From Tenrec ecaudatus (Eukaryota; Chordata; Mammalia; Afrosoricida; Tenrecidae): DNA of 64,000 nt. Numbering within the stretch: the stretch's first letter is position 1; every line of letters begins with the position of its first letter. The position numbers were made by a program, and so were the translations under genes. The notes beneath the pieces are model-generated. The model had not been told where the DNA came from and searched no databases. It saw only the letters and a program-made list of their open reading frames with translations. Below, piece by piece: positions 34,102-64,000 of this stretch. The stretch is from the NCBI RefSeq assembly GCF_050624435.1, contig NC_134539.1:123177525-123241524 (forward strand), written 5' to 3'.

Positions 34102-34143
<42 letters not shown>

Positions 34144-41913: not shown

Positions 41914-41953
<40 letters not shown>

Positions 41954-43839
41954 TGAGTGGAAACTGTATGTGTGTGGTTTATCTCCACATTTAGCTATAG
42001 ATACCTAAACATATAAAAGCTCAGTATAGAAAAGAATTAAAAGCAACTTAAATTAAAGCATTCTATTACAGTCTGTGACAAAAAGAAAGATTTTTAAATT
42101 TTTAAACCTGTAAGAGACATTTGCAATCACTGTCAAAAGGCATCCTATGAAAGCACTGGTAAAGGATGAAAAATACAAACAGGATAGGGCTTAAGACAGA
42201 ATGAGAATATGGAGTAGAGCCTTTGGATTTCTTAGCCTCAATTATTTGTATATAACAATGAGTTAAAAACTAAATAAGGAATTATTTTTCTTACTAACGT
42301 GGATAAGTAGTATTGTTCATTGGGTTGAAATTTTCATATTCCCTATTTTATTTCTCAAGGATAAGAAATCAACATTCTCACCATTACCACATACCAATCA
42401 TAATCACTACTCTGAGACACAAAAGACACAAAAAAACAGTCTCTCCTACTGTTGCTCTCTGAGTGTTCTAAAAAATTTCTAAATGAAATAGCAATAATTT
42501 ATACATAAAGCACTTTCACTTTACCTTCTTTTTAAAAATAAGAACAATGTTCTTGAGGCCATAAAGGAAAACGACCAGTTTTCAAGGCTGTATAAAAAGT
42601 ACAGGGTGGAACACATATTCTTGTTCATAAACAACAGCTAATGTAACAGTTGTTTCAATTTCTCCTTTTTCCTCTTCTCTCCAAGACTAATTAGCATTAT
42701 AAACAGTATGTTCCTTGTTTAAAATGCCTTCTTTCAACATTGGAACTATAGTATCTTTTGACAATCTAAAACTCTGGTCTAGGTTTGTTTGTGTGTTTTT
42801 TCCAAGTATATAGGAGGCAAGCACTTTTTATAACACTTCACACTATCTTAAAAAAAAGTTATTTTAATAAAATGGAAACAAGTATCTAGCATGGATGTTT
42901 CATGTATACTATTCTTACTTTGCAAATCATTATCTTAAAAATAAATGATTTTTAAGTACCTTTTTACATACTTACTGCTGAAAGGCTGTCATTGTGTTCT
43001 CCAAATTTTCTCCAGCACCTGTAAAAATATTAAACTTCCTTTACTTAGCTATTCTGAACATTTTATTTTAGTAAGAAATTTAGTAAGATACACCTACTGG
43101 ACCTGATACCCTGGTGCTTATTATATATTACATAGTTTGGTAGTTACATAATCTGGTGTGAACTTGAGACTATTAGGAGTGGAGGGGTGGAGTTTAGGCT
43201 GTCAATTGGTTTGCAGCTTGATGACCTCATTTGGAAGCACAATGGAGATAAGTAGCTCACTGGAGGGCAGACATACCCCCCTGTGAGACATTCCTGTTGA
43301 CAAGCCACATGGAGCTATACTGATGGAACCAGAGCCCTAAAGCTGGAAGAACCACAGAGACTCATGCCAGCACTGAGATGCTTCCACTGCCACTGGATCC
43401 ACAAGACTTTCCATCCACTGGCCTGTGATTCTCCTGCATTTGGCATTATTGCCTGGCTGCATGAGTCTGAAGAAGAATTTATAGACTGGTATCGGACATA
43501 TGGGCTATTATCAAACTTATAGACTTGATCTGACTGGGCTGGGATGTTTTCTTAATATACAATTACTCTGTAATATAAAGGTTTCTATTACACACATATG
43601 AGTGTCTCTGAATTTGTTTCTCTAGTTAACTTGGACTGACACAGATACACATTAAAATAAAAGTGTTTTAAAGAGTGTGATGGTATTTTGATTTTTTTCC
43701 CCTTTTCTTTTTAATCAACAACAGGAAGAATCAAAGATCAAAAAATAGCCACAGATTGGAGAGGGGGTGGTTAGAAGACTTAAATATGATTTTTTAAATC
43801 TACACTACCTGATTATCATAAAGACTTGGTATATTCATG

Positions 43840-43870
<31 letters not shown>

Positions 43871-55800: not shown

Positions 55801-58800
55801 GTTTCCAACTCATAGTAACCCTATCGGGCAGAGTTGAACTGCCTCTTTTGAGTTTCAAACTGCAACTCCTTATGGGAGTAGAAAGTCTCGAACTTTTCCC
55901 CAGAGTCGCTGGTAGTTGAGAACCGCTGATCTTACTGTCAGCAGCCCAATGCATAACCACTAAGCCACAAAGGTTCCTTCCGATTGGATCACTGAGAGAG
56001 AAATATATCCTTAAGGAGATGGCTTGACACAGTCACTGCAACAACCAACTCAAATATAACAGGACTGAAAATTATTTCATCTGGCTGTACATGGATCATT
56101 ATGAATCTAAATGGACTTATGGCACATTTAGAGCACATTTTAAACTTATTTAGGCTTCACTGTTTTTTCACTTATGTAGTACTACAAATTTTTTAATATA
56201 AACATATTTATTCTAATACAAAATTTAGATGATCCATAATGATGGCTGAAATTATTTTAAAGAGGAACTAGCTTTATTTGGTAAGCACTCGTTTCTGTTT
56301 TAAATTTGTAATACAACTGCAGTATGAACTATCTATCCTCAGACTAATATTACTACCATTGAAAGCTGTTTCCAAGACAACTGAGACACAAAACGCTGGC
56401 CTCTAGTTCTAATGGATGGAGACAAATTAGTAGTCTTGTCATCCAACAGCTTAATCGTGTATCTATTAAAACAGATATTAACTTTATAAGTAACAGTGCA
56501 TTTTATGGCTGGTGACCCTTTAAAATCTTTGCTTTTTAAGAGTAAAAGGCTAAGATAACTGAAGTTACTCTTTGCGTTTGTGTTTAATTGATAAACCTTT
56601 GCCAAAACCACTGGAATGAGTGGATTCTGACTCATGGGAACCTGTAGTCTCCTGAGTTTAAGAGGAGAACTGCTCATTAGGGTTTTCTTAGTTGTAATCT
56701 TTAAACAACTAAGCTTTCTTCTATGGCTAGGCTTTCTTCCCAGTTAATGAGTGGATTCAGAACTACCAACCTTTAGGGTAAGAGGGTGGATTCAGATCTA
56801 CCAACCTTTAGGGTAAGAGGGTGGATACTAATCACCAATTTTAAGTTAACAGCTCAACACAAACCAGCTTGTGTCACCACAAGTCATAAAGTTATATGAA
56901 AGTATGCTCATCTATTTCTGTGACATTTTAAATTTTAGTACTTGCTAATTCCTTTCACGATACTTATTCAATGTGCATGCTGAACAAATACTTTGAGAAA
57001 CTATACTACATAAAGGAAGATGCTGATCAGGAGAGGAAGGAGACTCATTAACAAACTAATATTCAGATGATGCAACTTTGCTTGCTCAAAGTACAGAAGA
57101 CTTGATGAAGATCAAAACCTACAGGGCTCAGTATGGATTACACCTCAACATAAAGGAAACGAAAACCCTCACAATATGCAGCATCATGAGGGATGTTGTC
57201 ATGGATTTCAGGATCCACAGATTTGCTTCGATCCACAATCGATGCCCATGAAAACACTAAGACGTCAAAAAATATCTATCAGAACGTATTGCACTGGGCA
57301 CATCAGCTGCAGAAGACCTCTTTAAGGTATTAAGACGTAAAGATGTCACCTTGAGGACTCAAACCACAGTATTTTCAATGACCTCATATGGATGCAAAAG
57401 CTCGACCATATATAAAGAACAACTGGTGCGTTGGCATTATGGTGTTGGCAATTACTGTGCCTACCATGAGCTGCCAGAACAAACAAACCTGTCTTGGAGG
57501 AAGCACAGCTAAAACGCTCGTTAGAAAGAGGATGGCGACACTTTGCCTCTGTACTTCGGACTATCACGGGAGACCAGCCCTGCAGAAGGGCCATCATGCT
57601 GAGGAAGAGGGTCATCCAAAGAGGAAGATGCTCCCACACTGGGACGACGCGGTGGCTGCAACGGTGGGCCCCAAACACAGCAACAATTGCGAGGACGGCA
57701 CGGGGCTGGGCAGGGTTTCCTTCTGTTGCGCACATGAGCCGCACCCACTCGGCGGCACCTGCACAGCGACAACTTAGCCAGTTCTTAGGAAAAAAGGTAT
57801 CGGTGTTCCATCAAGGTTGAGACTGCAAATTCCAAGCAAGTCCCACTCTAGTTTAGCATTCCTCTCTGAAGACTGACTGAAGGAAGCCTATTTCACACCA
57901 TACATGAAGGACATGCATATTGGGAAAGATTTGGCCCGTGACCTGGGAAATCAGTGAGCACCCGGATCCTTTCAGCAAGACCTTTGCCAAAAGAAACGTA
58001 TCTCTTTTCTTTACACAATTCAGTCCCGGCATAAATTTAACCGTTTGCAAATCTACTTATCACGGCTGGGGAGACGGGTGGGCTCAATGAAACAGGAGCA
58101 AGATTTGCAGCCTGCGGGTGGAGGGGCGCGCCGGTTCTCCCCCCAGTCCTGCCCACGGTGACCTTGGGCTCCGTCCCTGGCGCTCGGCCTCGGTTTCCCG
58201 CTCTTCCCATTAGCATGCTCACAGCGTGGCAGTGGGACCGGCGGCCAGGACCGCAGATCCCGGGGCTGCGGCGCGGCTCGCGCTTCCCGCGGCGGCTCAG
58301 CCCGCGAAAGCCGGCAGGTGCCCGAGCTCCGCGCCCCCTCATCCAAGGGCTCCCTTGGAGCCGCCGCTCCCGGTTCCCCGGGGCGGGGGACCCCCACCCG
58401 CCCGGCGCACCCCTCGAGTGCCTGGCCACCATCCAGCCGTCCGCCGGGAAACGCTCCGCCCACCCCTCACTCGCATCCAGGTCTTTCTTCCCTCAGGGGA
58501 CCCCGACAGCGCCGCCGCCGCACTCGAGACGACCCCCACCGCCGCCTTCCTCAGGAGCGCCCCCTTCACCTTCGGCGGAGCCCAGGGCGCACACAGCCCG
58601 CCGCCCGCAACGCCTGTGGCGGACCTCCGGGGGCCCCGCAGCGCTCGTCTGGGCCCGCCGGGCAGCCTGCCCCCACTCACCTCCGCGGTGAGAGATGTGC
58701 TTACTCAGGAATCGCTGCTTCTTTCTCTGGTGGAGCAGCGTCGGGTATTTGAGCAGCAAGAACGAGGTGACCAGGTATCCTCCCAGGGTGGAGAGAAGGT

Positions 58801-58822
58801 AAAACGCCACCGCGGACGACAT
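5543..58822 (-). CDS. GDPD1: GDPD1: glycerophosphodiester phosphodiesterase domain-containing protein 1 (GDE4), ten exons
   Basis: The enzyme hydrolyses lysophospholipids such as lysophosphatidylcholine and N-acyl lysophosphatidylethanolamine, releasing the head group (lysophospholipase D activity, giving lysophosphatidic acid or N-acylethanolamine). It is a membrane protein of the ER and perinuclear region; this is family knowledge. The coding join, written low to high for the minus strand, is 5543-5668, 5952-6003, 7769-7828, 9254-9387, 20526-20615, 23004-23122, 28185-28230, 31071-31206, 42976-43018, 58681-58822. All introns are GT-AG, all phases fit, and the product is 315 residues. Residues 5-30 form a membrane segment. 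The catalytic domain starts at about residue 42 with HRGG (45-48) and ENT (54-56), followed by the metal-binding ELD (72-74) and HD (87-88). A second hydrophobic stretch lies at 205-221. All key residues are intact and there is no frameshift, so the gene looks functional. Exon boundaries were set by homology and splice consensus. Confidence 0.96.
5952..6003 (-). CDS. GDPD1: GDPD1 coding exon 9 (residues 257-274)
   Basis: A 52-base exon, phase 2 in and phase 0 out. It completes Ile257 and encodes LLMRKALFDHLTARGIQ. The acceptor is TTCTAG just above 6003 and the donor is GTAACG at 5951-5946. Intron 9 is only 283 bases long. A copy of this exon on the plus strand (from about 59753) has a one-base deletion and an LTR inserted in it. 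Confidence 0.95.
6438..6485. repeat. T-rich micro-insertion between 13-bp direct repeats
   Basis: TTCATAGTTTCTT occurs at 6438-6450 and again at 6473-6485. Between them lie 22 bases that are almost all T with three C and one A (6451-6472). The form matches an L1-type target-site duplication around an A tail with no element body, in minus orientation. It is in GDPD1 intron 8. Confidence 0.5.
6558..6640 (-). repeat. Short L1 3'-end fragment
   Basis: This is a diverged copy of the last 80 or so bases of the L1 tail, recognised by the reverse complement of TGTATGGATTGT and the GGGGGCT stretch next to the A-rich edge. Confidence 0.6.
7388..7625 (-). repeat. AfroSINE-like SINE, minus orientation
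   Basis: From left to right it carries the reverse complement of the SINE tail (CTGACTCAGATTGACTC), then TTTCCAAGGCTATAAATCTTT, CAACTGCCTTATCTTTCTACC, and the tRNA-derived head next to CAAGGCTCCTT. The family is the afrotherian tRNA-derived SINE. It is split by a small T-rich insertion at 7464-7512. Confidence 0.8.
7464..7512. repeat. T-rich micro-insertion between 16-bp direct repeats, inside a SINE
   Basis: AAGGCTATAAATCTTT is at 7464-7479 and 7497-7512, exactly flanking 17 T-rich bases (7480-7496). The host SINE is otherwise continuous, so the empty site can be inferred. This looks like a target-site duplication around a bare A tail, read on the minus strand. Confidence 0.6.
7769..7828 (-). 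CDS. GDPD1: GDPD1 coding exon 8 (residues 237-257)
   Basis: A 60-base exon, phase 2 in and out. It encodes LKEPHTMSRCQKFLIWLSD between the split codons for Lys237 and Ile257. The acceptor is GCCTCAG above 7828 and the donor is GTAAGAAT at 7768-7761. At the SRCQ position I recall Ser rather than Cys in the human protein. Confidence 0.95.
8787..8968 (-). repeat. L1 3'-end fragment, minus orientation
   Basis: An AT-rich, diverged copy of the terminal 180 bases of the L1 tail: ATCATTTTATCAGGG edge, AATCCATACATC, then AGTATCAGCTCCTCATCCCC. Confidence 0.75.
9254..9387 (-). CDS. GDPD1: GDPD1 coding exon 7 (residues 193-237), second hydrophobic segment
   Basis: A 134-base exon, phase 0 in and phase 2 out. 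It starts NSDIPILFSLQRV after the acceptor TTTTGCAG and contains the hydrophobic run VLLILGLFFTGLLPFVP (about residues 205-221), which interrupts the catalytic domain in GDE4-type enzymes and is a predicted membrane segment or hairpin. It ends FFEIPMPSIIL plus two bases of Lys237. The donor is GTAAGT at 9253-9248. Confidence 0.96.
9578..9697. mobile_element. Short palindromic MITE-like element, copy 1
   Basis: This is about 120 bases with terminal inverted repeats: the right end reads ATACGAGTATATACGGTACC and the left end is an imperfect reverse complement. The centre (CACCTAATTGTCCCACAAAA) is shared with the element at 23351-23468 on the other strand. I do not recognise the named family. It is non-coding. 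Confidence 0.6.
10113..10270 (-). mobile_element. L1 3'-end insertion with 14-bp target-site duplication
   Basis: The last 160 bases of the L1 tail in minus orientation, flanked by the perfect direct repeat TCACACACATTTTT at 10099-10112 and 10271-10284. It inserted next to an older L1 3'-UTR fragment (10285-10450). Confidence 0.88.
10285..10450 (-). repeat. Older L1 3'-UTR fragment
   Basis: The reverse complement carries the mammalian L1 3'-UTR phrase that includes TGAGTGAAATAAGTCAACCAC and GGACAAAT near the end, seen on the plus strand as GTCCCTTTGTGGTTGACTTA. Confidence 0.65.
10480..12905 (+). mobile_element. Longest L1 3' copy: L1 3' region joined to the lineage-specific tail
   Basis: From 10600 to 10910 the sequence reads like the old mammalian L1 3' region (CAGTCATAGCAGTCAAAACAG, AAATCCATCCACCTATGGAC). 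Around 11030-11160 it has the L1 3'-UTR block with GTACTATGCATCACT and AGTCAGCCAATCACAAAAGG. It then runs without a visible break into the long module set found in all the tail fragments here, ending with AAAACGATTAAAAAAA near 12900. This join is the main evidence that the abundant tail is an L1 3' UTR. The open frame of 143 codons at 11185-11616 (minus) is chance. Confidence 0.7.
12906..13063 (+). repeat. L1 tail fragment
   Basis: A partial copy beginning in the GATATAGTGTCTGAGGTC module and ending near TATCACTGTGTGCTCG. It lies directly between two other copies in the same orientation. Confidence 0.6.
13064..14412 (+). mobile_element. L1 tail copy interrupted by a solo LTR
   Basis: The module order is normal from the CTCGCCTTCCC module to the final CCCCCCAATAAAATGATTT plus A tail, except for the insertion at 13315-13800. 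Removing that insertion rejoins GCAGGGACC with CAAAG as in other copies. Confidence 0.75.
13315..13800 (+). mobile_element. Solo LTR with 5-bp target-site duplication
   Basis: The 486-base element begins TGAGTTAGC and ends CTAACACA, so it has the LTR TG...CA termini. It is flanked by GGACC at 13310-13314 and 13801-13805. A 5-bp duplication is typical of ERVL/MaLR-type elements; the family is inferred, not identified. Related copies lie at 28460, 31383, 43136, 46862 and 59784. No internal retroviral genes are present. Confidence 0.85.
14430..14668 (-). repeat. AfroSINE-like SINE, minus orientation
   Basis: It carries the SINE tail complement (GCCATTGAGTAAATTATGACTC) and ends with the tRNA-like head complement (TAACCACTAC-ACCGTCAGGGCTCCC). 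The internal part is degraded. Confidence 0.7.
14755..14900 (-). repeat. L1 3'-end fragment, minus orientation
   Basis: A diverged terminal piece with AAAATCATTTTACTGGGG at the tail edge and GAGCCCTTGGTATAAACTCCTCCC at the truncated side. Confidence 0.7.
14915..15480 (+). repeat. Old L1 3' region fragment
   Basis: It carries typical L1 ORF2-end and 3'-UTR phrases, including GGCCAACAAACACACAATC, GATGCAAACTGAAACTACAATGAG, TGTGGAGAGAATGGAACTC and AGAAATCCCGCCACTGAATA. Stops are frequent. It is 5'- and 3'-truncated. Confidence 0.75.
16080..16975 (+). mobile_element. BovB-like RTE LINE, reverse transcriptase part (first half)
   Basis: Translating in shifting frames shows RTE reverse-transcriptase motifs: a CVPIPMKGDP-like block and CFIDYAKSFDCVDHNQL (near 16640-16670), whose F-D belongs to the RT catalytic site. 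Stop codons and frameshifts are many, so the copy is dead. An L1 tail copy (16976-17880) splits it, and the second half resumes at 17881. Confidence 0.85.
16976..17880 (+). mobile_element. L1 tail insertion nested in an RTE copy
   Basis: The module order is intact from TTCCCAAACACAATTGG to CCCCAATAAAATTAAAAAAA. The RTE reading on the left (GTTGCTTAAAGAG) resumes on the right with AGAGAACTTGAAGCACTTGC, so the L1 copy is younger than the RTE copy. Confidence 0.8.
17881..18620 (+). mobile_element. BovB-like RTE LINE, 3' half
   Basis: This continues the RTE copy with CTTGCTGATGAAGATCAAAG and GGATCTACTATGAATGCTCATG. It ends with the 3' terminal module ATGTGAGGATGGCGCA...GAGTCGCTCTGAATCGGAC, which resembles the SINE tail. 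Confidence 0.85.
18955..19180 (-). repeat. Dispersed repeat shared with 51376-51600
   Basis: Both loci contain AATATACACAG/GATATACACAG, TTCAAT/TTCAAC, a GTGACACTGAT/GTGGCACTGAT block, CTCCCTC-type pyrimidine tracts and CATTAACATA/CACTAACATA. The orientation is provisional and the family is not identified. Confidence 0.5.
19195..19895 (+). repeat. AfroSINE-like SINE split by a SPIN transposon
   Basis: The head GGAGCCTTTGTGGTTGTAGT, the middle GTTTGAAACCACCAGCAGCTCC and the region TGTCCTATAGGTCATTATGAC are left of the transposon. The SINE end GGCAGTGAGTGAG follows directly after its right duplication. Removing 19383-19869 and one duplication restores a continuous SINE. Confidence 0.85.
19383..19869 (+). 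mobile_element. SPIN-type non-autonomous hAT transposon, 487 bp
   Basis: Termini are inverted repeats: CGGTGGTTCTCAACC on the left and GGTTGAGAACTGCTG on the right. The target duplication is ATCTAGAT (19375-19382 and 19870-19877), which fits the NTCTAGAN target preference of this hAT group. The body has the SPIN phrases AATTATTTTCATTGTTACTTC and TCCGATGGTCTTAGGCGACC near the right end. SPIN elements are known as horizontally transferred DNA transposons in a patchy set of tetrapods including tenrec, bush baby, murine rodents and some bats. No transposase is encoded; this form depends on one supplied in trans. Confidence 0.93.
20526..20615 (-). CDS. GDPD1: GDPD1 coding exon 6 (residues 163-192)
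   Basis: A 90-base exon with both ends in phase 0. It encodes VSELVKQYKREHITVWGNAS followed by YEIVKKCYKE. The TVWGN motif is a conserved part of the GDE4 barrel. The acceptor is TTTGTAG at the high end and the donor is GTAAG at 20525-20521. Confidence 0.96.
20873..22789 (+). mobile_element. 1.9-kb L1 3' insertion with internal direct duplication and 15-bp target-site duplication
   Basis: AAGAAGTTAATTGAA flanks the element at 20858-20872 and 22790-22804. Inside, the block from GTCTTAAAGGCTTGAAG to the terminal TTGTTATAAGACCTGTAAG (about 21311-22017) is followed at once by a second copy of the same block (about 22018-22760), which alone ends with AATAAAATTATTT. One outer duplication around two 3' blocks implies a single rearranged insertion, or a very exact nested event. 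Confidence 0.8.
23004..23122 (-). CDS. GDPD1: GDPD1 coding exon 5 (residues 123-162)
   Basis: A 119-base exon, phase 1 in and phase 0 out. It completes residue 123 and encodes CHCEGKDNRIPLLKEVFEAF then PNTPINIDIKVNNNMLIKK. The IPLLKEVFE and NIDIK blocks are classic for the family, and the acidic and lysine residues of IDIK line the active-site barrel. The junction codon is GAA (Glu123) where I recall Ala in human. The acceptor is TTTCTTAG and the donor GTATTT. Confidence 0.96.
23351..23468. mobile_element. Short palindromic MITE-like element, copy 2
   Basis: GTACCACATATACTAGTGTA at the left and the near-exact reverse complement ending in GAGTATATATGGTAC at the right bound 118 bases. It is related to 9578-9697, inverted relative to it. 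A SINE follows directly. The family is not identified. Confidence 0.65.
23470..23630 (+). repeat. AfroSINE-like SINE, 3' half
   Basis: It contains TGGCTTTCTCCTCCCATAAA, GGCAGTTCTACTCTGTCCTA and the tail GGTCACTATGAGTCAGAATT, with GACTCAATGGCAGTTGG. The head is missing or was replaced at the junction with the MITE. Confidence 0.8.
23755..23930 (-). repeat. Old, diverged SINE-like repeat (partner at 41575-41760)
   Basis: It shares AATTGTGCTCCAT/AACTGTGCTCCAT, GGCTGATTTTTCAGAA/GGTGATTTTTCAGAA, a TCTTCCAA block and a loosely tRNA-like right end with the copy at 41575. It is probably an old subfamily related to the SINE tail; confidence is limited. Confidence 0.45.
23931..25049. other. Intron 4 sequence without recognised elements
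   Basis: AT-rich sequence with no exon, open frame of note, or repeat that I can assign. Confidence 0.5.
25050..25240 (+). repeat. MIR element
   Basis: It matches the ancient mammalian-wide MIR SINE: TCTGGTTTCAAGTCC, a CACCTTGATCAAGTGATTTAC core, then CCTCCCTCAGTTACCTGATC. A small direct repeat (TCCGAGCTCTG) is present in it. Confidence 0.75.
25265..27085 (-). mobile_element. BovB-like RTE LINE, minus orientation
   Basis: The left end holds the 3'-terminal module in reverse complement. The frame near 26292-26525 (minus) shows an FNYAKTFNCV-like remnant of the RT catalytic block and KLWAALRRMEVPEHFIVLM, which follows it in RTE proteins. The far end near 27000-27085 carries the segment read on the minus strand as ATGAAATGTG...CACAG. 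The copy spans about 1.8 kb of the RT and C-terminal region and is disabled by many stops. Confidence 0.85.
27305..27460 (+). repeat. AfroSINE-like SINE, 3' half
   Basis: It carries ACGCCACCAGCAGTTC, TTTCTGCTCCCATAAAGATT, and the tail GTCCTATGAGTCAGAATC with GGTGGCAGTGGGTTT. Confidence 0.8.
27858..27888. repeat. A-rich micro-insertion between 13-bp direct repeats
   Basis: AAAAAGTGAAGAT occurs at 27858-27870 and 27876-27888, separated by GCAAA. The repeat starts with a run of A as expected for L1-endonuclease target-site duplications in plus orientation. Replication slippage is the alternative. Confidence 0.35.
28185..28230 (-). CDS. GDPD1: GDPD1 coding exon 4 (residues 108-123)
   Basis: A 46-base micro-exon encoding ELPPYLGKLDVTFQR plus the first base of codon 123. 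The acceptor TTTTTAAG is weak in pyrimidine content close to the AG, and the donor is GTAAAGG. Its identity rests on the exact fit of frame and protein between exons 3 and 5. Confidence 0.95.
28460..28858 (+). repeat. Diverged solo LTR of the 13315-13800 group
   Basis: It shares GCCACTGCCACTGGATTCAC, TCTTCCTGCATTCTGCATCA, GTGAGTCTGAAGAGG, and a TTGTCTTGATA...CTCTTTCTCACACAT end with the copies at 43136 and 59784. The exact ends and any target duplication are blurred. Confidence 0.6.
28985..29190 (-). repeat. AfroSINE-like SINE, minus orientation
   Basis: It reads TTGAGTTGACTCCAACTCAG, ATAGGATTTCCAAGGCTATA, CTTTCTCCTATGGAGTGGC and ends ACAGCACTATGAGGACTCCTT, the complement of the tRNA-like head. 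Confidence 0.85.
29485..29688 (-). repeat. AfroSINE-like SINE, minus orientation
   Basis: It carries GCGACCCTATAGGATAGGTC, TCTTTCTCCTGAAGAGCAGC and CATAACCACTACGCCATTAG in the expected order for a full-length reversed copy. Confidence 0.85.
29938..30295 (-). repeat. AfroSINE-like SINE split by a SPIN element
   Basis: The left part ends TTTCCAAGGCTGTAAATCTT and the right part resumes GGAACAGAAAGCCTCACC through CACTGCACCACCAGGGCTCC. The two join normally if 30025-30202 is removed. The head abuts a plus-oriented SINE at 30296. Confidence 0.85.
30025..30202 (-). mobile_element. SPIN-type hAT MITE, 178 bp
   Basis: The ends are CACCGGTTCTCAACC and GGTTGAGAGCCACTG, inverted repeats of the SPIN type. 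It carries CCCCTTTGGGAGTTGAACGA and GGGTTCACCACAACATGAGG, the two outer parts of the longer SPIN copy at 19383 with the middle deleted. Flanking 8-mers are CTTCATAG (30017-30024) and CCTTATAG (30203-30210), a decayed target duplication. Confidence 0.9.
30296..30455 (+). repeat. AfroSINE-like SINE
   Basis: It carries GTACGCTGCTAACTACAAGG, AAAAAGATGAGGCTTTCTAC and GGTTACTATGAGTCAAAATG, ending GGCAATGAGTTTGG. It is head-to-head with the preceding SINE. Confidence 0.8.
30470..30620 (+). repeat. AfroSINE-like SINE
   Basis: A second plus copy: AAGCTGCAAGGTCAGCAGTT, AGAAAGACAGGGCTTTTTAC, and the tail GGCAATGAGTTTGGTTT. It follows the previous SINE closely, so the pair may be a tandem array or two insertions. 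Confidence 0.75.
31071..31206 (-). CDS. GDPD1: GDPD1 coding exon 3 (residues 62-107), metal-binding core
   Basis: A 136-base exon, phase 2 in and phase 0 out. It completes His62, then encodes AVTIGTDMLELDCHITKDEQ followed by VVVSHDENLKRSTG and ending ISDIKYC. ELD (72-74) holds metal-binding acidic residues and HD (87-88) the second catalytic histidine of the GDPD family. The acceptor is TTCTCAG and the donor GTAAGT. Confidence 0.97.
31275..31377 (-). repeat. Partial SINE
   Basis: A remnant with GTGTTATCAGGTTAATTCAA and a TTTCCTAAACTGTGGTCTTT stretch, like the left part of reversed AfroSINE copies. The LTR at 31383 follows. Confidence 0.45.
31383..31902 (-). mobile_element. Solo LTR with 5-bp target-site duplication
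   Basis: This 520-base reversed LTR has TGCGTTAGTCTGGGT at one end and AACTATCTCA at the other. GATAC flanks it at 31378-31382 and 31903-31907. It belongs to the group at 13315 and 46862, sharing CAATCCACAAAGTCCTCCTC and AGAAAGCAAGAGACC. Confidence 0.88.
32277..32501. mobile_element. hAT-type MITE with 8-bp target-site duplication
   Basis: A 225-base element with inverted ends CAGACATCCTCAACTACGG and AAGTTTGAGGACCCCTG. It is flanked by GTCTAATC at 32269-32276 and 32502-32509. Inside are TATCCGGCCCACTGGGTG and GGTCTGAGGGACAGTGAACT. It is distinct in sequence from SPIN. No transposase is encoded. I recognise it as a hAT non-autonomous element but not the exact family name. Confidence 0.88.
32889..33053 (+). 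mobile_element. Extreme 5'-truncated L1 insertion with 15-bp target-site duplication
   Basis: Only the last 165 bases of the L1 tail are present, ending CCCCTAATAAAATGATTT plus A. AAGAATTACATGAAA flanks it at 32874-32888 and 33054-33068. Confidence 0.9.
33534..33872 (+). mobile_element. Tigger1-like pogo-type DNA transposon fossil
   Basis: It matches the remembered Tigger1 end: GTATACCTCAGAGATACTGC, CCAAACCATTGCAAATAA, GCATATAAAAGTGATGTTTAC, and a right end TATGCAATAAAACAAG...TGCCTATAT. It is an internal-deletion derivative with no transposase. Confidence 0.7.
33873..34839. other. Intron 2 sequence with one microsatellite
   Basis: Apart from the (TG)n tract at 34106-34146 and a weak repeat near 34505-34600 (TCATACAATTCAATAGTTC), I recognise nothing here. 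Confidence 0.5.
34106..34146. repeat. (TG)n / (CG)n microsatellite
   Basis: A TG run that passes into GCGCGCGC and GTGCGTG. Confidence 0.9.
34845..36545 (+). mobile_element. L1 3'-UTR copy, second subfamily
   Basis: The first 450 bases (GGGGGCAGCACTTGG, GGAATAGCAATGGTGACTTT, GTGTTGTTAGGTATGCAGGA) are shared only with 54395-54950. The later part (GCATTCTATGATACTCACC, GGAAGAAGCACACCAGCC) is the common L1 tail. It ends near GAGCTCCCAAGAAAATGATT. It probably represents an older 3'-UTR variant of the same L1 lineage. Confidence 0.65.
36546..38470. other. Unclassified repeat-like tract in intron 2
   Basis: Segments such as GAAACAGAGGGTTTCC (near 36590) and AAGCCACCCACTTGTGGGAT near 37350 look like ends of old mammalian LINE or LTR elements, and 37700-38450 resembles a degraded LTR element. 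I cannot assign a family. No exon or durable reading frame is seen. Confidence 0.4.
38471..38700 (-). repeat. Diverged L1 tail fragment
   Basis: The block CACAGGCTGGTACGCTTCTT with CCATGTAGACTTAGTTG matches the internal L1 tail module in reverse; the remainder has decayed. Confidence 0.5.
38701..39727. other. Intron 2 sequence without recognised elements
   Basis: AT-rich, no assignable repeat and no splice-bounded coding sequence seen. Confidence 0.5.
39728..39925 (+). repeat. AfroSINE-like SINE, full length, plus orientation
   Basis: It begins with the tRNA-like head TCCCTGGATAGTGCAAATGG and continues TAAGTGCTTGCCTACTAACT, GTTAGCAGTTTGAACCCACC and GGTTACCATGAGTTAGAATC, ending TGATGGCAACT. 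An A-rich tail follows. Confidence 0.85.
40207..41130 (-). mobile_element. Mariner transposon with internally deleted transposase
   Basis: On the minus strand an ATG at 40949 begins MANLREQRAAVKFCFLLTKN, the N-terminal helix-turn-helix region of a mariner transposase. After an internal deletion the frame-shifted 3' part has YHDNAP (near 40590-40610) and PYSPDLSPCDFFLF (near 40485-40530). That motif holds the last catalytic aspartate of the DD34D triad. The C-terminus KYFQKWNHRFDKC...GEYFEGD follows. Candidate inverted ends are TGAGGGGGTACCCCCAAAAC near 40207 and an imperfect partner near 41110-41130. The central catalytic region is missing, so the element is dead. Its 181-codon minus-strand frame is not a host gene. 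Confidence 0.85.
41575..41760 (-). repeat. Old, diverged SINE-like repeat
   Basis: It carries AGAATTGTGCTCCATGGGGC, TTTTTCAGAAGTCGATTTAC and CCCACCTTTCGGTTATCAG, ending GTACCACACAGGGACTCC. It is paired with 23755-23930. Confidence 0.55.
41915..41952. repeat. (TG)n microsatellite
   Basis: About 38 bases of uninterrupted TG. Confidence 0.93.
41953..42975. other. Intron 2 sequence next to exon 2, no recognised elements
   Basis: Single-copy-looking AT-rich DNA. Apart from the donor of exon 2 at its edge I see no feature. Confidence 0.5.
42976..43018 (-). CDS. GDPD1: GDPD1 coding exon 2 (residues 48-62), catalytic ENT motif
   Basis: A 43-base micro-exon, phase 1 in and phase 2 out. It completes Gly48 and encodes AGENLENTMTAFQ, then the first two bases of His62. 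ENT (54-56) together with HRGG from exon 1 forms the catalytic loop of the GDPD fold. The acceptor is TTTTACAG and the donor GTAAGT. It is too short for any ORF finder and was located by protein continuity. Confidence 0.96.
43136..43643 (+). repeat. Solo LTR, diverged, of the 59784-60300 group
   Basis: The left edge TTTGGTAGTTACATAATCTGG aligns with the start of the LTR at 59784. It continues CCACTGGATCCACAAGACTT, ACTGGCCTGTGATTCTCCTG and GGGATGTTTTCTTAATATAC, ending TGGACTGACACA. The flanking 5-mers CATAG and GATAC no longer match well. Confidence 0.75.
43840..43868. repeat. (CA)n microsatellite
   Basis: About 29 bases of CA. Confidence 0.9.
43940..44265 (+). mobile_element. BovB-like RTE LINE, 3'-end fragment
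   Basis: It carries GGTGAAGAATACTTAAAGTA, CAAAAGAACAAACAAATCT, GTGGAGGGCCAGCAAAAG, and the terminal module GGCTCAAGCATAACAAC followed by GTGATTATGAGTGGAACCAAC. This is the last 300 or so bases of the element. Confidence 0.85.
44350..44560 (+). repeat. MIR element
   Basis: GGACTCTGGACTCAGGAGGC, the core GTGTGACCTTGGACAAGTTA and AGGATAATGACAGCAGC match the MIR consensus order. Confidence 0.88.
44895..45160 (+). repeat. RTE-derived SINE-like repeat
   Basis: It has a module CAGTCACTACCCACCTGTTA, GTTTCAGTGGAGTTTACAGA and ATCAGCCAATGAAAACCATG. It ends in the RTE-like 3' module GGGGCTGGTGCAGGACTGAG with TTTCACTCAGTTGCG. A weaker copy lies at 50165-50420. Confidence 0.6.
45640..45820 (+). repeat. 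L1 tail fragment
   Basis: GGAGCTGATACCAAGGGCTC to TTCAATAAAATGATCC is the L1 end. A second remnant of the terminal AATAAAATTATTT lies just left of it. Confidence 0.75.
46305..46440 (-). repeat. MIR fragment, minus orientation
   Basis: It carries TATTATCCCAAGATCAAATT and AACTGGGACTCAAGCACAAG in the order of a reversed MIR. Confidence 0.6.
46862..47363 (-). mobile_element. Solo LTR with 5-bp target-site duplication
   Basis: A 502-base reversed LTR, TGTGTTAGTCTGCGT to CTAACTATCTCA. AGTAT flanks it at 46857-46861 and 47364-47368. It is the closest relative of the copy at 31383-31902 in this window. Confidence 0.88.
47369..48216. other. Intron 1 sequence, mostly unassigned
   Basis: Only a short SINE end (GATGAGTCAACATCAACTCA with ATGGCAGTGAATTTG, about 47830-47875) is recognised. 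Confidence 0.5.
48227..48562. mobile_element. Small 5'-inverted L1 insertion
   Basis: 48245-48330 is the L1 3' end in minus orientation (AAATCATTTTATTGGTGACT). 48336-48562 is an internal L1 tail segment in plus orientation (CACCTTCCTGATACGATTGC to GATCAGGTATTAG). The unit is flanked by GCTTTTGTTT at 48217-48226 and 48563-48572. A 3' piece and an inverted 5' piece within one target-site duplication is the twin-priming pattern. Confidence 0.7.
48815..48985 (-). repeat. AfroSINE-like SINE, minus orientation
   Basis: It carries CTTCCAACTCACAGCAACCC, CAACTGCCCCCATCTTTCTC and GAACTGCTGACCAACTGGC. Confidence 0.75.
49000..50160. other. Intron 1 sequence with an (ATT)n tract and a MIR
   Basis: (ATT)n lies at 49273-49293. 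A reversed MIR is at about 49650-49800 (CCCATTTATAGATAAGGAAA, AAATTTGACTCAGGTCACA). The rest is unassigned. Confidence 0.6.
50566..50895 (+). pseudogene. TMA7: Processed pseudogene of TMA7 (translation machinery-associated 7, CCDC72)
   Basis: An ATG at 50566 is followed by a frameshifted version of the short lysine-rich TMA7 protein. EMDEEEKAFKQKQK, IKAKAAGKGVLATGRIKKSG and KK then a stop at 50758-50760 are readable in two frames. The 3' UTR continues to AATAAACTTTATAAAAAG and an A/G-rich tail ending about 50915. There are no introns, and a change early in the gene breaks the frame, so it is a retrocopy. Confidence 0.88.
51376..51600 (-). repeat. Dispersed repeat shared with 18955-19180
   Basis: GAATATACACAGTAGTGCAT, AGTTCAGTGGCACTGATTAC, CCCACTAACATAAACTCGC and GAACTGCTATTGTCAGTCTG recur in the other copy. 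The orientation is provisional and the family is unnamed. Confidence 0.5.
52231..52425 (+). repeat. AfroSINE-like SINE inside RTE
   Basis: TCCTGATGGTACAGTGGGAT, GCTGCTAACTGCAAAGTCCG, AAACCACCAGCTACTCCACA and TAGCTTACTATGAGTAGATA give a complete copy. Confidence 0.85.
52861..53444 (+). mobile_element. Solo LTR with 4-bp target-site duplication, inside RTE
   Basis: The 584-base element begins TGTTAGG and ends CCTTACA, near-perfect short inverted repeats of the LTR type. GATT flanks it at 52857-52860 and 53445-53448. Removing it rejoins AACCTGGATT with CAGAACAGG, the normal RTE reading. It is more GC-rich than its surroundings and unrelated to the other LTR group. A 4-bp duplication is typical of gammaretrovirus-like (class I) ERVs. 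No viral genes are present. Confidence 0.88.
54141..54179. repeat. Oligo-T between 16-bp direct repeats, inside RTE
   Basis: AAGGTATGATATTTTC occurs at 54141-54156 and 54164-54179, separated by seven T. It has the same layout as 6438 and 7464. Confidence 0.5.
54346..55720 (+). repeat. Cluster of L1 tail fragments, including the second subfamily
   Basis: 54346-54392 is a terminal remnant with GACCCCAATAAAATGATTG. 54395-55440 matches the 34845 copy (GGGCAGCACTTGCACCCC, GTGTTGTTAGGTATGCAAGA). Two further short tails follow, ending CCCTAATAAAATG near 55572 and CCCCTAATAAATTG near 55695. Confidence 0.7.
55780..55982 (-). repeat. AfroSINE-like SINE, minus orientation
   Basis: It carries CTCATTGCCATAGTGCTGTT, GGGCAGAGTTGAACTGCCTC and CATAACCACTAAGCCACAAA in order. 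Confidence 0.82.
56590..56870 (-). repeat. Old SINE with a 35-bp tandem duplication
   Basis: The SINE-like order is degraded: ATTCTGACTCATGGGAACC, TAGGGTTTTCTTAGTTGTAA. At 56751-56785 and 56786-56820 a 35-base unit is repeated (GTGGATTCAGA/TCTACCAACC), and a third partial start follows. Confidence 0.55.
57035..57780 (+). mobile_element. BovB-like RTE LINE, 3' third
   Basis: CAGATGATGCAACTTTGCTT (a relic of the RT YADD box), GACTTGATGAAGATCAAAAC, TCAATGACCTCATATGGATG and GCCATCATGCTGAGGAAGAG follow the RTE order. The last 150 bases are unusually CpG-rich next to the GDPD1 CpG island. Confidence 0.82.
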
Positions 58823-59160: not shown

Positions 59161-59639
59161 TGGAAACCTGCCAGGGCCCAGCCCTCGGGAGCGTCTGACA
59201 TAATGGCCAAATCCACGTCAAGAAGGAAAGGTTCCAGGCTGACTTAACCCCTACCCTAGAAAATGCAAAGGATTGTTAGGGATGGAGGTGTAGAAACAAG
59301 CAATAAAGGTCGTCATTTGTTTGACCGAGAGAAAATGTCCCATTGTGTCACACAGGCCATTAAAGGTTCATCAGTCAAATGATCGAGTGAGAAAATGCAG
59401 TTCCCATTGCTTGTACCGAGGGCGTCTCAAGAAATATGTTGAATAAAACAGTTTAAAATAAGGAACTATAAACAAGGTTATAGGCTATCACTTAACTGTT
59501 CTAGGAGACTGAGGACTAAATTCCAGAAGACTCTGTGTTTCTTCTTCATCTCACATGTCCCAAACTACGAACACATTAAGAGATACAATTACCTGCCAAG
59601 GAATTAAGCCAGAATTGAGGGAGAATTGGGGACAAGAAT
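59161..59639. other. Upstream flank of the GDPD1 CpG island
   Basis: Single-copy-looking sequence with no recognised gene or repeat. Confidence 0.5.
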
Positions 59640-60940
59640 TACTTTTATTGCTACCACACTACGATTTAAATTCAACCAGAAATTACTAAACTCTAAAAAA
59701 GCCAGTTAGATATAAAAAACATTTGTCGATGTGTTTTACTTTTCTGTTCTAGATTACTGATGGAAAAACTCTGTTTGACCACCTGTGGTACTTACATCCT
59801 CTGATGTCAATTGAAGGATTCAGAGTGAAGGGATGGATCAGGATATAGCCAATGAGGCCTCGGTGTGGGCATGGCCTTCTCCTGAGGATTCTGGGAACTC
59901 CAGGATTTCCTCCTTGGAGGCTGGAGACACACTTTCTCACTCTGCTCACTCCCTGAGAGACGCTCTACTGACAAGGCACATGGCACTAAGCTGACTGACC
60001 CCGTGCTCTGGGAACTGGAGCAGCCACATGGAGACCCCTCCCAGCCCTGAGATGCTTAGAACGCCACTGGATCCACAAGACTTCCCACCCACTGGCCTGT
60101 GGTCTTCCTACATTCAGCGTCATTGCATGTGTTTTGTGAGTCTGCAAAGGACTTTATAGATTGGTATCAGGCTTATGGACTTGATCTGGACTGGACTGGG
60201 ATATTTTCTCAATATTCAATTGCTCTTGTATATAAAGCTCTTTCTTATACACATATGAATGTCCACGAATTTGTTTCTCTAGTCTACCTGGACTAACACA
60301 CCACCTTACCGCCCGAGGCATTCAGGTAATTTTGTAGAATGAGGGATGCTCTTTGGCAGCAGCATAGCTCACCAGTGCAGCTCAAGTGTGAAGGGCAGGG
60401 ACTTTTGATTAACTTAACTTGGTCCTTGGCTCCAATTAAGCTCCCTTGCTTACTCACAAACTAAATTCTGCCTCATAGTTAATAATAAGTACAAGTTTAA
60501 AAGGTTATTTCCAAGGGTGCTGAGAATCTAGCGGATAAAGGCTATTATAAAAAATAATTTTCTCTCAACATATTTCTCATACTTCTCATGCTTCAATTTT
60601 CAGGTGTATATTTGTGTACTAAATGGAGAACAAGAATACCAAAGAACATTTGATCTGGGAGCAACTGGAGTGATGACAGACTATTCAACAAAACTTAGGA
60701 TTTTTTTGCTTAATTTCTCAGCAGCAGAGTAAAAAGAGATCCACAAAGTCAGTTTTCTCTCATTTTCCTAAGCCATTTCCAGTATGGGAAAAAGTTTCAT
60801 TGGTTAAGTTTTATTACCTCATATGTAAGGCTGAATGAGAATGTAGACATATTGCACATTTATTTTAAACAATCTTATTTTACATTTATAAATTGCTTAG
60901 AAAGATACCTGGTTGTTGATACCTAAACAGCATGTGGAAA
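59640..60940 (+). pseudogene. Inverted partial duplicate of GDPD1 (intron 8 - exon 9 - intron 9 - exon 10 - 3' UTR)
   Basis: The plus strand here aligns with the GDPD1 minus strand from about 6100 down to about 5300. Retained pieces are the end of intron 8 with its acceptor (TTTCTGTTCTAG at about 59742-59752), exon 9 (CTCTGTTTGACCACC then TTACCGCCCGAGGCATTCAG), the donor region, most of intron 9 including GAATGAGGGATGCTCTTTGG, the exon 10 acceptor (ATTTTCAG), exon 10 (frame VYICVLNGEQEYQRTFDLGA, then TGVMTDYSTKL, ending SAAE and a stop) and about 200 bases of 3' UTR (ATTTTCCTAAGCCATTTCC). Introns are present, so it arose by DNA duplication, not retroposition. A one-base deletion in exon 9 (GAAAAACTC against CGAAAAGCTC) shifts the frame, and an LTR splits that exon. 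Exon 10 is still open. Confidence 0.92.
59784..60300 (+). mobile_element. Solo LTR with 5-bp target-site duplication in the duplicated exon 9
   Basis: The 517-base element runs from TGTGGTACTT to GACTAACACA. CCACC flanks it at 59779-59783 and 60301-60305; both are exon 9 sequence (the GACCACCTTA stretch). Removing it restores exon 9. It is closely related to 43136-43643. Confidence 0.92.
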
Positions 60941-61569
60941 GCAAAGGAAACTGACACAAAATAATTATTGGTGGCAGATCAATTCATCATAGTCACAGTC
61001 TGGGCTACAGAACTGTGAAAGGGACTAGGGTTGAGATACACACTACTGCAATTTAGAAAAATTGACAAGATTAGCTCAGGGATAAGGTGGTCTGGGTATG
61101 ACTCATGACAATGTACCTTAAGACCCAATTTCCATCAAGGGAAAAGTCTTGAGGGTGAGACCACACCCCTGCCCAGGTAACCAGGGAAGTAACTGCAAAT
61201 ACAATCGACTGGAGGGCAACTCTTTTACATTGCCAATCAACAGTGCCACCACTGGTCTGGGAGTTTATGGTATGTAGTGGCTTTTGTGTTTCTGTGATGC
61301 TAGAAACTATGTCACTGGTATTTTCAGATACCAGCAGAGGCACCCAAAGTGAACAGATTTCAGCAAAGCTTACAGACTCAGAGCAGACCGTGAAGAAGGA
61401 ACAGGCTGTCCATTGCAGAGGAATTAACCACTGAAAGCCTTATGAGTAGCACTGAAACATTGCCACATGCTGGCAGCTTCATGAATAGCAGCAGAACATT
61501 ATCAGAGAGTGTGCAGAAGGATGAGCCCCTCAGATCTGAAGGCATCCAAAATATGGCCAAGGGGGAGCT
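60941..61569. other. Upstream intergenic sequence and possible RTE 5' part
   Basis: 60941-61200 has no recognised element. 61225-61569 (GTGCCACCACTGGTCTGGG, GTGAACAGATTTCAGC) precedes the RTE copy and probably belongs to it or to a fused SINE, but I cannot confirm that. Confidence 0.4.
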
Positions 61570-63295
61570 GCCTTCTCAAAGTAGAGGCAACCATAATGAC
61601 ATGGATGGAGTAAAAGAGCTAAGCAGAAAACGCCAAAGGACACTTCAAGAAGACCAAGTAAAATACTGTAATGAAATGTGCAAAGACCTAGAGTTAGAAA
61701 ACCAAAAGGGAAGAACACACTCAGTATATCTTAAACTGAAAGAACTCAAGAAAAAACTCAAGGGGGGAAAAAATTCAAGAACTAGCATATGATCAAGAAC
61801 CAATGGTACTGAGGAAGAAGTCCCATTTCACTGAAGGCATTAACCAAAAACAATGCTCCAGAAATTGGTGTAATGTCAATCGAAATGTTTCAATGAATTA
61901 ATGAAGCACAGGGAGTACTTACTCATCTATGCCAAGAAATTTGGAAAACAGCTATCTGGCCAACTGATTGGAAGGGATACATATTTGTGAAAAAATGACC
62001 CAACAAAATCCTCAAATCATTGAACAATAGTAATACCACATGCAAGTAAAATTTTGCTGAAAATCATCCAACAACAGTTGCAGCAGTACATTGACAGGGA
62101 GCTGCCAAGAGGTTCAGGAAAGATTCCAAAGAGAACATGGGACAAGGAATGTCATTGCTGTTGTCAGATGGATCTTAGCTGAAAGCAAAGAGTGCCAGAA
62201 AGATGTCTATCTGTGTTTCATTGACTATGCAAACTCATTTGACTGGGTAGATCATAACAAACTGTAGAGTCTTGAGAACGGTGAGAATTCCAGAACATTT
62301 GATTTGTGCTCATGTGGAACCTATACACAGATGGAGAGGCAGCTGTGCAACTAGAACAAGGGAATACTGCCTGGTTTAAAATCAGGAGATGTGTGCATCG
62401 GGGTTGTGTCTTCTCGTTATACTTACTCTATCTATGCTAAACAAATAATCAGAGAAGTTGGATTATATGAAGAAGAATCAGGCATCAGGATTGAAGGGAA
62501 GTTTATTAACAATATACAGAGGACACAACATTGCTAGCTGAAAGTGAGGAGGAAATGGAGCACTTGCTGATGAAGATCAAGGATTTAGACTTCAGTAGGG
62601 ATTATAGCTCAATGTAAAGAAGAGACAAAGCCTCACAACTGGCCCAGTAGCAAACACCCTGATAAATGGAGAAAAGATTGAAATTGTCAAGGACTTTATC
62701 TTGCTTGGAGCAACAATTAATGCTCATGGAAGGAGCAGTCAATAGGTCAAATAGCACATTGCATTGGGTAAATCTGTTGCACAAGACCTCTTTAAAGTGT
62801 TTAACGGCAATAATGTCACTTTGACGACTAAAGTGTGCATGACCCAAGCCATGGTATTTCCAATGGCCTCATATGCATGTGAAAGTTGAACACGGAATAA
62901 GGAAGAACAAAGAACCCATGCATCTGAATTATGGTACTGGTGACGAAAACGGAAAGTCCTTCGGACTGCCAAAAGACAAACAGATCTGTTTTGGGAAGAA
63001 GTACACGAAGAACACTCCTTAGAGGCAAGGATGATAAGACTTCACCTCACAATCTTCGGACATGTTGTCATAAGTCACCGATGCCTGGAAAGGACATCCT
63101 ACTTGGTAAAGTAGAGGGACAGAAAAAAAAGACCCTCAACAAGATGAATTTACATAGCAACTTCAACAATGAGCTAAAACATAAGAACAATTGTGAGAAT
63201 GGCATAGGGTAGGGTGGAGTGTTGTTCTGTTGTTTGTAGGGTGTCTGTGAGTCTGAGCAGACTTGAAAGCACCTAACAGCAACAACCGGCAACAA
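61570..63295 (+). mobile_element. BovB-like RTE LINE, RT to 3' end
   Basis: CAACCATAATGACATGGATG and GAAATGTGCAAAGACCTAGA open the conserved part. CFIDYANSFDWVDHNKL (near 62215-62265) is the RT catalytic block. CTTGCTGATGAAGATCAAGG, ACGAAAACGGAAAGTCCTTC and the terminal GGTGTCTGTGAGTCTGAGCA with ACCTAACAGCAACAACC complete it. The largest open frame is 116 codons (61442-61792), so it is inactive. It is the most contiguous RTE copy here (about 1.7 kb). Confidence 0.88.
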
Positions 63296-63499
63296 TAAGA
63301 AGGACTCACTTGAGACTGAGTTTATGTAGAGACTCAAAATATACTTAGGACTCTTACTGTAAACCAGAACCTCCTGCAAACCTAGTCCTCGGAATTCAAA
63401 TGTTTATATGGATATAGATCAACTGTTCGATAAAGCAAAATTATTAAAGGCCATTACAACTCTTCTGAGTTGTATATTTTTAGGTACATCTTACTTAAA

Positions 63500-63635
63500 G
63501 GAACTAATGGAGAGCAAATGTTTTGAGAATGATGAGGGCAATGAATGTACAAATGTGCTTTACACAATTGATGTATGTATGGATTGTGATAAGAGTTGTA
63601 TGAGCCCCTAATAAAACGATTTAAAAAATGAAAAG
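63500..63635 (+). mobile_element. Extreme 5'-truncated L1 insertion
   Basis: About 120 bases of the L1 end (GGAGAGCAAATGTTTTGAGA to CCCCTAATAAAACGATTT plus A). It is flanked by AAAGGAACTAA on the left and AAAGGAACTTA on the right, a probable target-site duplication with one mismatch. Confidence 0.8.
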
Positions 63636-63659
63636 GAACTTAAACAAAAAGAGTGAAAC

Positions 63660-64000
63660 TGGAACTTAGAAATCAGTGGTGTATGATGATGAGCAAGGGG
63701 TAATGCCTGCTGGGGCTGATCAAGTTCAATGTTTCCAAGAGAAATTGCTGAGAACTGAATGGAGAGTGAGCATGATAGTGGGACAGGAAGAAGGTGAAAG
63801 AAAATGAAAGAAAAAAGTAGGAGACAAAAGCTATTTGTATCTATAGGCATGTATTTATGTGAATATATTAACTTATAACAAAAGGAATAGAGGCCCATGT
63901 ACATATATTTATATATTAAGTATTAAGATAGCAGATGGACTTTGGGCCTCTATTCAAGGCCTCTCTAAACACAAGAAAACTTTGCACTGATAACCTGGCA
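63660..64000 (+). repeat. L1 tail copy running off the window end
   Basis: GAGTGAGCATGATAGTGGGA, GGAGACAAAAGCTATTTG, AGCAGATGGACTTTGGGCCT and the start of the next module are present in order; the 3' end lies beyond 64000. Confidence 0.8.

What the first reader, a model, noticed from the sequence alone, without database searches (positions are those of the whole stretch)
59640..60940. Inverted DNA-level duplicate of the 3' end of GDPD1 placed just upstream of its own promoter, with an LTR in the duplicated exon 9
The plus strand carries intron 8 (end), exon 9, intron 9, exon 10 and 3' UTR of GDPD1, whose parental copies lie on the minus strand about 54 kb away. Introns are kept, so this is a segmental duplication. 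Exon 9 has a one-base deletion and is split by a 517-bp solo LTR with CCACC on both sides. Exon 10 is still open with an intact acceptor. An inverted pair of this kind flanking a gene could mediate inversion by recombination, or give antisense transcripts able to pair with GDPD1 mRNA.
Basis: seen in the sequence. Interest (0 to 1): 0.78.

Follow-up and report, generated by a model that had tools for sequence, protein, structure and literature searches.

The report
Inverted pseudogene fragment of GDPD1's end
A stretch of DNA holding the last two exons of the mammalian gene GDPD1 was copied, flipped, beside the gene's own promoter and has since decayed, broken up by mobile elements; it looks like an ordinary relic, though it could also mark an old inversion of the gene.

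Summary
59632-60943 (+), without the LTR, aligns to the reverse complement of 6112-5281: intron 8 end, exon 9, intron 9, exon 10, 3' UTR (773 columns, 112 differences; score 472.5, best of 50 shuffles 19). The 517-bp solo LTR (59784-60300) between CCACC copies and the one-base exon 9 deletion are as described. The parent GDPD1 is complete (10 exons, 315 aa). New: the duplication goes on at 63403-63504 (parent 5204-5104) behind an insertion with an RTE-like element, and further repeats hide its right end.

The copy is a decayed fragment: dN/dS 0.68-0.99 in exon 10, and 3 of 9 replacements hit positions invariant in 98 of 98 orthologues. The functional claims are weak: the longest identical run is 36 bp, below usual recombination minima, and divergent transcription from the GDPD1 promoter would read the copy in sense, not antisense. 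Most likely it is a local inverted DNA duplication of a known kind. Not excluded: the scar of a staggered-break inversion of GDPD1. Interest is low to moderate.

The parts
5543..58822 (-). GDPD1 coding region: 10 exons (58822-58681, 43018-42976, 31206-31071, 28230-28185, 23122-23004, 20615-20526, 9387-9254, 7828-7769, 6003-5952, 5668-5543), 948 nt with stop, 315 aa, intact
   Evidence: exon chain with AG/GT at every intron and one open frame; Pfam GDPD 120.5 bits; 96% identical to the best orthologue cluster
5104..6112 (-). Parental stretch of the duplication: intron 8 end, exon 9, intron 9, exon 10, 3' UTR and further downstream (no counterpart found in the copy for about 5298-5205)
59632..59783 (+). 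Copy, first piece: intron 8 end and 5' part of exon 9 (exon from 59753, one-base deletion), ending with CCACC
59784..60300 (+). Solo LTR, 517 bp, TG...CA, CCACC on both sides (5-bp target duplication; ERVL-like by recalled features only); partial relatives at 43279-43643, 31383-31724 and elsewhere in the window
60301..60930 (+). Copy, second piece: second CCACC, rest of exon 9 (to 60325), intron 9, exon 10 (60604-60732 with TAA), 3' UTR; the end is approximate (BLASTN match to 60914, longer alignment to about 60943)
60931..63402 (.). Insertion dividing the copy; 61650-63203 is similar to several other places in the window (RTE/BovB-like, name recalled); the edges 60931-61649 and 63204-63402 are unassigned
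63403..63504 (+).
   Evidence: 73% identity, score 41 against maximum 17 of 200 shuffles
63506..63640 (+). SINE copy with its second target copy (relatives in the window up to 97% identical); AAAGGAACT at 63497-63505 and 63632-63640, read by eye from the printed sequence, as target duplication
63642..63683 (+). Possible fourth piece of the copy (parent 5097-5056), supported only by its colinear place
   Evidence: score 16, maximum 18 of 200 shuffles
63687..64000 (+). Another repeat (similar to 1419-1730), reaching the window's end and hiding the right end of the duplication

Best explanation
A piece of genomic DNA of at least about 1 kb, from the end of intron 8 to beyond the 3' UTR piece of GDPD1, was copied at DNA level in inverted orientation into the DNA just upstream of the GDPD1 promoter, most plausibly by replication template switching or break repair within the locus. 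No exons 1-8 were found with it, and it has decayed as a pseudogene fragment. It lost a base in exon 9, took up a solo LTR in exon 9, an RTE-like element, a SINE and a further repeat, and changed invariant residues in exon 10. Shown: the inverted copy, its kept introns, its insertions, its decay and the intact parent gene. Inferred: the DNA-level mechanism, the direction of copying, the age and the lack of function.
For: Colinear inverted alignment through intron 9 and 107 aligned columns of intron 8. Extension past the 3' UTR piece to parent 5104. Intact 10-exon parent. dN/dS 0.68 (NG86) and 0.99 (YN00) between the two exons 10. Of 9 amino-acid differences, 7 are changed on the copy side as judged by dugong (3 of them at positions invariant in 98 of 98 orthologues) and 2 on the parent side, where the copy keeps dugong's Leu and Phe. 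Both copies read Ser-Ala-Ala up to the parental stop, an ending that none of 98 orthologues has (dugong ends in Ser-Ala), so the duplication is probably younger than that extra codon. Precedent: of 143 young human same-chromosome duplicate pairs 77 are inverted, and human duplicates arise mainly by DNA-mediated events (PMC4546093, passages).
Against: The right end is hidden under a repeat at the window's edge, so junctions, microhomology and target duplications of the event itself cannot be read. Divergence is uneven: 12.3% up to parent 5443, 23.7% beyond (maximum chi-square permutation p 0.0025; an earlier test on 75-column windows without the third piece gave p 0.775). A single event with even neutral decay does not predict that; past gene conversion, constraint, alignment quality or chance may explain it.
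Confidence: 0.68

Rival explanations
1. Scar of an inversion: staggered breaks around exon 9 to the 3' UTR and upstream of the promoter flipped exons 1-8 with the promoter, and repair duplicated the stretch between the breaks, so inverted copies flank the flipped segment. The 'copy' at 59.6 kb would then be the piece left in the original place.
For: The pair lies in inverted orientation at both ends of exons 1-8 plus promoter, which is the pattern described for staggered-break inversions in Drosophila (PMC5080602, passages). Human duplications and duplication-inversions at the GDPD1-YPEL2 locus are known (PMC7675008, PMC11537883, passages).
Against: No direct evidence of an inversion. No neighbour gene was recognised in either flank in the 20 of 110 reading frames scanned, so orientation is untested. 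The place that would match the parent's AATAAA (4996) is not visible on the copy side, so poly(A) signals do not tell which copy is original.
Confidence: 0.14
2. Retrocopy: a 5'-truncated, unspliced or intron-retaining GDPD1 transcript was reverse-transcribed and inserted upstream of the gene.
For: The copy is truncated in intron 8, is in transcript sense from 59632 on, and its similarity comes to 108 bp (perhaps 60 bp) from the parent's AATAAA at 4996; a poly(A) tail could lie under the repeat at the window edge.
Against: Intron 9 and the intron 8 end are present; insertion only 810 bp from the parent's own start codon would be a coincidence.
Confidence: 0.1
3. The copy does something: it supplies an alternative last exon or a divergent noncoding RNA from the GDPD1 CpG island, or pairs with GDPD1 RNA.
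For: Acceptors of both copied exons and the exon 9 donor are kept; a donor-like site lies at 59387 between CpG-rich stretch and copy; the LTR carries a TATAAA at 60231.
Against: Exon 10 changes show no clear constraint; there is no AATAAA or ATTAAA on the + strand from 59601 to 61500; one site of the form GTRAG in about 910 bp is no more than chance gives (about 1.8 at equal base frequencies, my arithmetic, no control run). Antisense pairing needs minus-strand transcription from beyond 60.9 kb. No RNA data.
Confidence: 0.05
4. Assembly artefact.
For: None found.
Against: 112 differences in 773 columns, 16 gap openings and an LTR, an RTE-like element and a SINE in the copy only cannot come from misjoining reads of one sequence.
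Confidence: 0.02

Closest known systems
Unprocessed (duplicated) pseudogene fragments from local inverted DNA duplications
   Same: Introns kept, same chromosome, inverse orientation, partial gene, no clear constraint
   Different: Lies beside the parent's own promoter and is split by several transposable elements; nothing in principle new
Staggered-break inversion duplications (Drosophila subobscura inversions O4, O8; PMC5080602, passages)
   Same: Gene pieces duplicated in inverted orientation at the ends of one segment
   Different: Not shown here that the segment is inverted relative to relatives
Inverted low-copy repeats that mediate inversions by non-allelic homologous recombination (reviewed in PMC2583991, passages; the haemophilia A F8 case is recalled)
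   Same: Inverted pair flanking a gene
   Different: Here the pair is about 1 kb, about 14% diverged, with a longest identical run of 36 bp
Human RP17 structural variants at GDPD1-SMG8-YPEL2 (PMC7675008, PMC11537883, passages)
   Same: Duplication and inversion in the same gene neighbourhood
   Different: Human disease variants, for example a 226-kb duplication, with unique breakpoints in the YPEL2 to LINC01476 region; no relation to this old 1-kb copy was shown

Membership tests
Unprocessed (DNA-duplicated) pseudogene | Similarity runs through introns | tested here: met
   intron 9: 34 differences in 279 columns (278); intron 8 end: 16 in 107
Unprocessed (DNA-duplicated) pseudogene | Disabled relative to an intact parent | tested here: met
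   one-base deletion and LTR in exon 9; no second copy of exons 1-8 in the window at E below 0.6 with a recalled human-type probe; parent intact
Unprocessed (DNA-duplicated) pseudogene | No constraint on the coding part | tested here: met
   dN/dS 0.68 and 0.99 over 41 codons; few sites, no significance test
Retrocopy (processed pseudogene) | Introns removed | tested here: not met
   intron 9 and intron 8 end present
Retrocopy (processed pseudogene) | Poly(A) tail and target duplication at the ends | tested here: inconclusive
   longest shared word around 59632 and 60930 is 6, reached by 162 of 200 shuffles, but 60930 proved not to be the right end
Staggered-break inversion scar | Inverted duplication at both ends of one segment | tested here: met
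Staggered-break inversion scar | Segment inverted relative to the ancestral order | not testable with these tools
   no neighbouring gene recognised in the window flanks; whole-genome search not answered
Recombination-competent inverted repeat | Long run of near identity between the arms | tested here: not met
   longest identical run 36 bp; the review gives a 20-fold drop from 232 to 134 bp and 300-500 bp for human meiosis, with exceptions under 114 and under 50 bp
Solo LTR | One LTR, TG...CA, between short target duplications, no internal sequence | tested here: met
   59784-60300, CCACC on both sides
ERVL-type LTR | Match to the family consensus | not tested
   no library of repeats at hand; 5-bp duplication and end motif recalled

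The most novel reading that the evidence does not exclude
GDPD1 itself was flipped in this lineage by a staggered-break inversion whose only scar is this inverted duplicate; the 'copy' is the original 3' end, and the gene now uses the duplicated one. The lower divergence from intron 8 to the early 3' UTR would mark later gene conversion between the two arms.
Probability: 0.1. Interest if true: 0.5.

Novelty: new member of a known kind. Interest (0 to 1): 0.25.

Why it matters
Mostly as a correct annotation: an old inverted partial duplicate explains stray GDPD1 exons upstream of the gene and could mislead gene prediction or read mapping. If synteny showed that GDPD1 is reversed here, it would be a compact mammalian example of a gene flipped with its promoter while its last exons were supplied by the duplication made in the same event, at a locus (RP17) whose human rearrangements cause a blinding disease (PMC7675008, abstract start and passages).

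Tried and rejected
Assembly artefact: rejected on divergence and private insertions. Antisense control of GDPD1: not supported by the orientation of the copy relative to the promoter. Present-day recombination: longest identical run 36 bp. Constraint on exon 10: dN/dS 0.68 and 0.99. Homologues of the copy's exon 10 peptide as a protein of its own: none found, since no candidate shared three words with the 42-residue query, which also misses true GDPD1 relatives because of the length limits. Target-duplication and poly(A) test of a retrocopy at 59632/60930: made with what turned out to be the wrong right end, so inconclusive. Poly(A) signals as a hint to which copy is original: dropped, because the place matching the parent's AATAAA is not visible in the copy and the copy's third piece has an ATTAAA at 63443. 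Mammalian DNA relatives in viral and prokaryote collections: 0 matches of a degenerate exon 10 pattern. Neighbour genes SMG8/YPEL2 in the flanks: 20 of 110 listed reading frames were scanned against Pfam at E up to 0.1; the only hits were Ribosomal_L6 (E 0.0022) and Anillin (E 0.054), both under their cut-offs. Rfam at gathering threshold: one U6 copy only, not related. Literature: GDPD1 with tenrec 0 papers; GDPD1 with inverted duplication 1 paper, on RP17; GDPD1 with pseudogene 12 papers, 10 listed, none on this by title; Echinops telfairi with segmental duplication 6 papers, none on this by title; one search listed 3 papers on retinitis pigmentosa variants at the locus; two searches gave 0 papers; some searches listed the mechanism papers. 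Papers seen in passages only: PMC11537883, PMC7675008, PMC2583991, PMC4546093, PMC5080602; all others in search listings only.

Full report
Observation. The stated region carries an inverted copy of the 3' part of GDPD1. BLASTN inside the window pairs 59638-59784 (+) with 6104-5971 (minus) and 60300-60914 with 5977-5309. With the LTR left out, a global alignment of 59632-60943 to the reverse complement of 6112-5281 has 773 ungapped columns with 112 differences and 76 gap columns. Its local score is 472.5, against a shuffle mean of 14.4 and maximum of 19.0 in 50 shuffles, and 15.5 for the parent in the other orientation. By part, in the local alignment (differences/columns): intron 8 end 16/107, exon 9 3/50 with one gap, intron 9 34/279, exon 10 15/126, 3' UTR 44/212; K2P 0.167, 0.064, 0.135, 0.130, 0.244 (exon 9's last base was counted with intron 9). 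The LTR is exactly 59784-60300, 517 bp, TG...CA, with CCACC on both sides.

The parent. The window holds a complete GDPD1 on the minus strand: ten exons from 58822 to 5543, all introns with AG/GT, 315 codons and a stop, no stop inside. It has the Pfam GDPD domain (120.5 bits) and is 96% identical to the best orthologue cluster, 90% to a dugong form. The copy starts 810 bp upstream of its ATG, beyond a CpG-rich stretch that ends near 59200. The host species was not established; the copy's Leu at exon 10 position 36 is shared only with dugong among 98 orthologues, which fits Afrotheria.

The copy is longer than reported. A sensitive search of the flanks paired 5204-5104, downstream of GDPD1, with 63403-63504 (+), colinear and in the same inverted sense (73%; score 41 against a maximum of 17 in 200 shuffles). 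Between 60930 and 63403 lies an insertion whose middle (61650-63203) is similar to several other places in the window and reads as RTE/BovB-like (name recalled). After 63504 comes a SINE with AAAGGAACT at both ends, then a possible further piece 63642-63683 (score 16, shuffle maximum 18, so not significant alone), then another repeat from 63687 to the window's end. For parent 5298-5205 no counterpart was found in 60920-61150 or 63230-63410. On the left, nothing above chance was found in intron 8 beyond 59632. The true right end is therefore not visible.

Decay. Exon 10 of the copy is open for 42 codons and then TAA; the parental stop codon reads GAG. This means little: between the two exons dN/dS is 0.68 (NG86) or 0.99 (YN00). 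Of nine amino-acid differences, seven are on the copy side as judged by dugong, three of them (W4, A15, P28) at positions invariant in 98 of 98 orthologues with a readable exon 10 end (98 of the 120 listed of 1240 hits). Two differences are on the parent side: the copy keeps dugong's Leu36 and Phe38. Both copies read Ser-Ala-Ala up to the parental stop, an ending that none of the 98 has, so the duplication is probably younger than that extra codon, barring conversion. With recalled neutral rates of 2-4 x 10^-9 per year, intron 9 gives very roughly 17-34 million years and the downstream part more; this is an inference only.

Uneven divergence. Along 857 ungapped columns including the third piece, divergence is 12.3% up to parent 5443 and 23.7% beyond; a maximum chi-square permutation (2000 shuffles) gives p 0.0025, and intron 9 (34 of 278) against downstream noncoding columns (64 of 295) gives Fisher p 0.0027. 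A coarser test without the third piece gave p 0.775. The tests were made after seeing the pattern. Past gene conversion between the arms is possible; chance, constraint or alignment quality are not excluded.

Function. The copy is on the + strand and GDPD1 on the minus strand, with the promoter between. A transcript leaving the GDPD1 promoter in the other direction would read the copy in sense. Antisense RNA would need minus-strand transcription from beyond 60.9 kb, and a GDPD1 pre-mRNA starting in the CpG-rich stretch (inferred) would not contain the copy. Acceptors of both exons and the donor of exon 9 are kept, one donor-like site lies at 59387, and no AATAAA or ATTAAA lies on the + strand from 59601 to 61500. 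Recombination between the arms today is unlikely: the longest identical run is 36 bp, whereas the review PMC2583991 (passages) tells of a 20-fold drop when the run was cut from 232 to 134 bp and of 300-500 bp for human meiosis; it also cites somatic events with less than 114 bp and events with less than 50 bp between repeats 5 kb apart.

Origin. Kept introns favour a DNA-level event. Of 143 young human same-chromosome duplicate pairs, 77 are inverted (PMC4546093, passages), so an inverted local copy is ordinary. Template switching can insert an inverted segment (PMC2583991, passages). Because the pair flanks exons 1-8 with the promoter, the alternative is a staggered-break inversion, which leaves such inverted duplicates at the ends of the inverted segment (PMC5080602, passages). 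In the 20 of 110 listed reading frames scanned, the flanks showed no neighbour gene that would tell the orientation, and the genome search did not complete. Poly(A) signals do not help: the parent has an AATAAA at 4996, but the matching place is not visible on the copy side, whose third piece has an ATTAAA at 63443. In humans the same neighbourhood suffers duplications and duplication-inversions that cause RP17 (PMC7675008, PMC11537883, passages); no link to this copy is shown.

Verdict. The feature is most likely an ordinary decayed inverted partial duplicate; the inversion-scar reading is the one worth a cheap synteny check.

Noticed in passing
window 63403-63504 and 5104-5204: Unreported continuation of the inverted duplication beyond an RTE-like insertion and up to a SINE; the duplication may leave the window on the right.
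   Followed up: yes
window 59632-60930, 63403-63504 against 6112-5104: Divergence between the arms is about twice as high downstream of parent 5443 as before it (p 0.0025, but p 0.775 in the coarser test), a possible trace of old gene conversion.
   Followed up: partly
window 1874-2227 (-): Reading frame with a weak Ribosomal_L6 match (19.2 bits, cut-off 27), likely a ribosomal protein L9 processed pseudogene (name recalled).
   Followed up: no
window 26192-26280 (-): U6 snRNA copy (Rfam RF00026, 47.2 bits), gene or pseudogene not decided.
   Followed up: no
window 63506-63640: SINE copy 97% identical to the one at 32933-33053, flanked by AAAGGAACT.
   Followed up: partly
window 5554-5543 and 60718-60729: Both GDPD1 copies read Ser-Ala-Ala up to the parental stop position; none of 98 orthologues ends in Ser-Ala-Ala.
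   Followed up: yes
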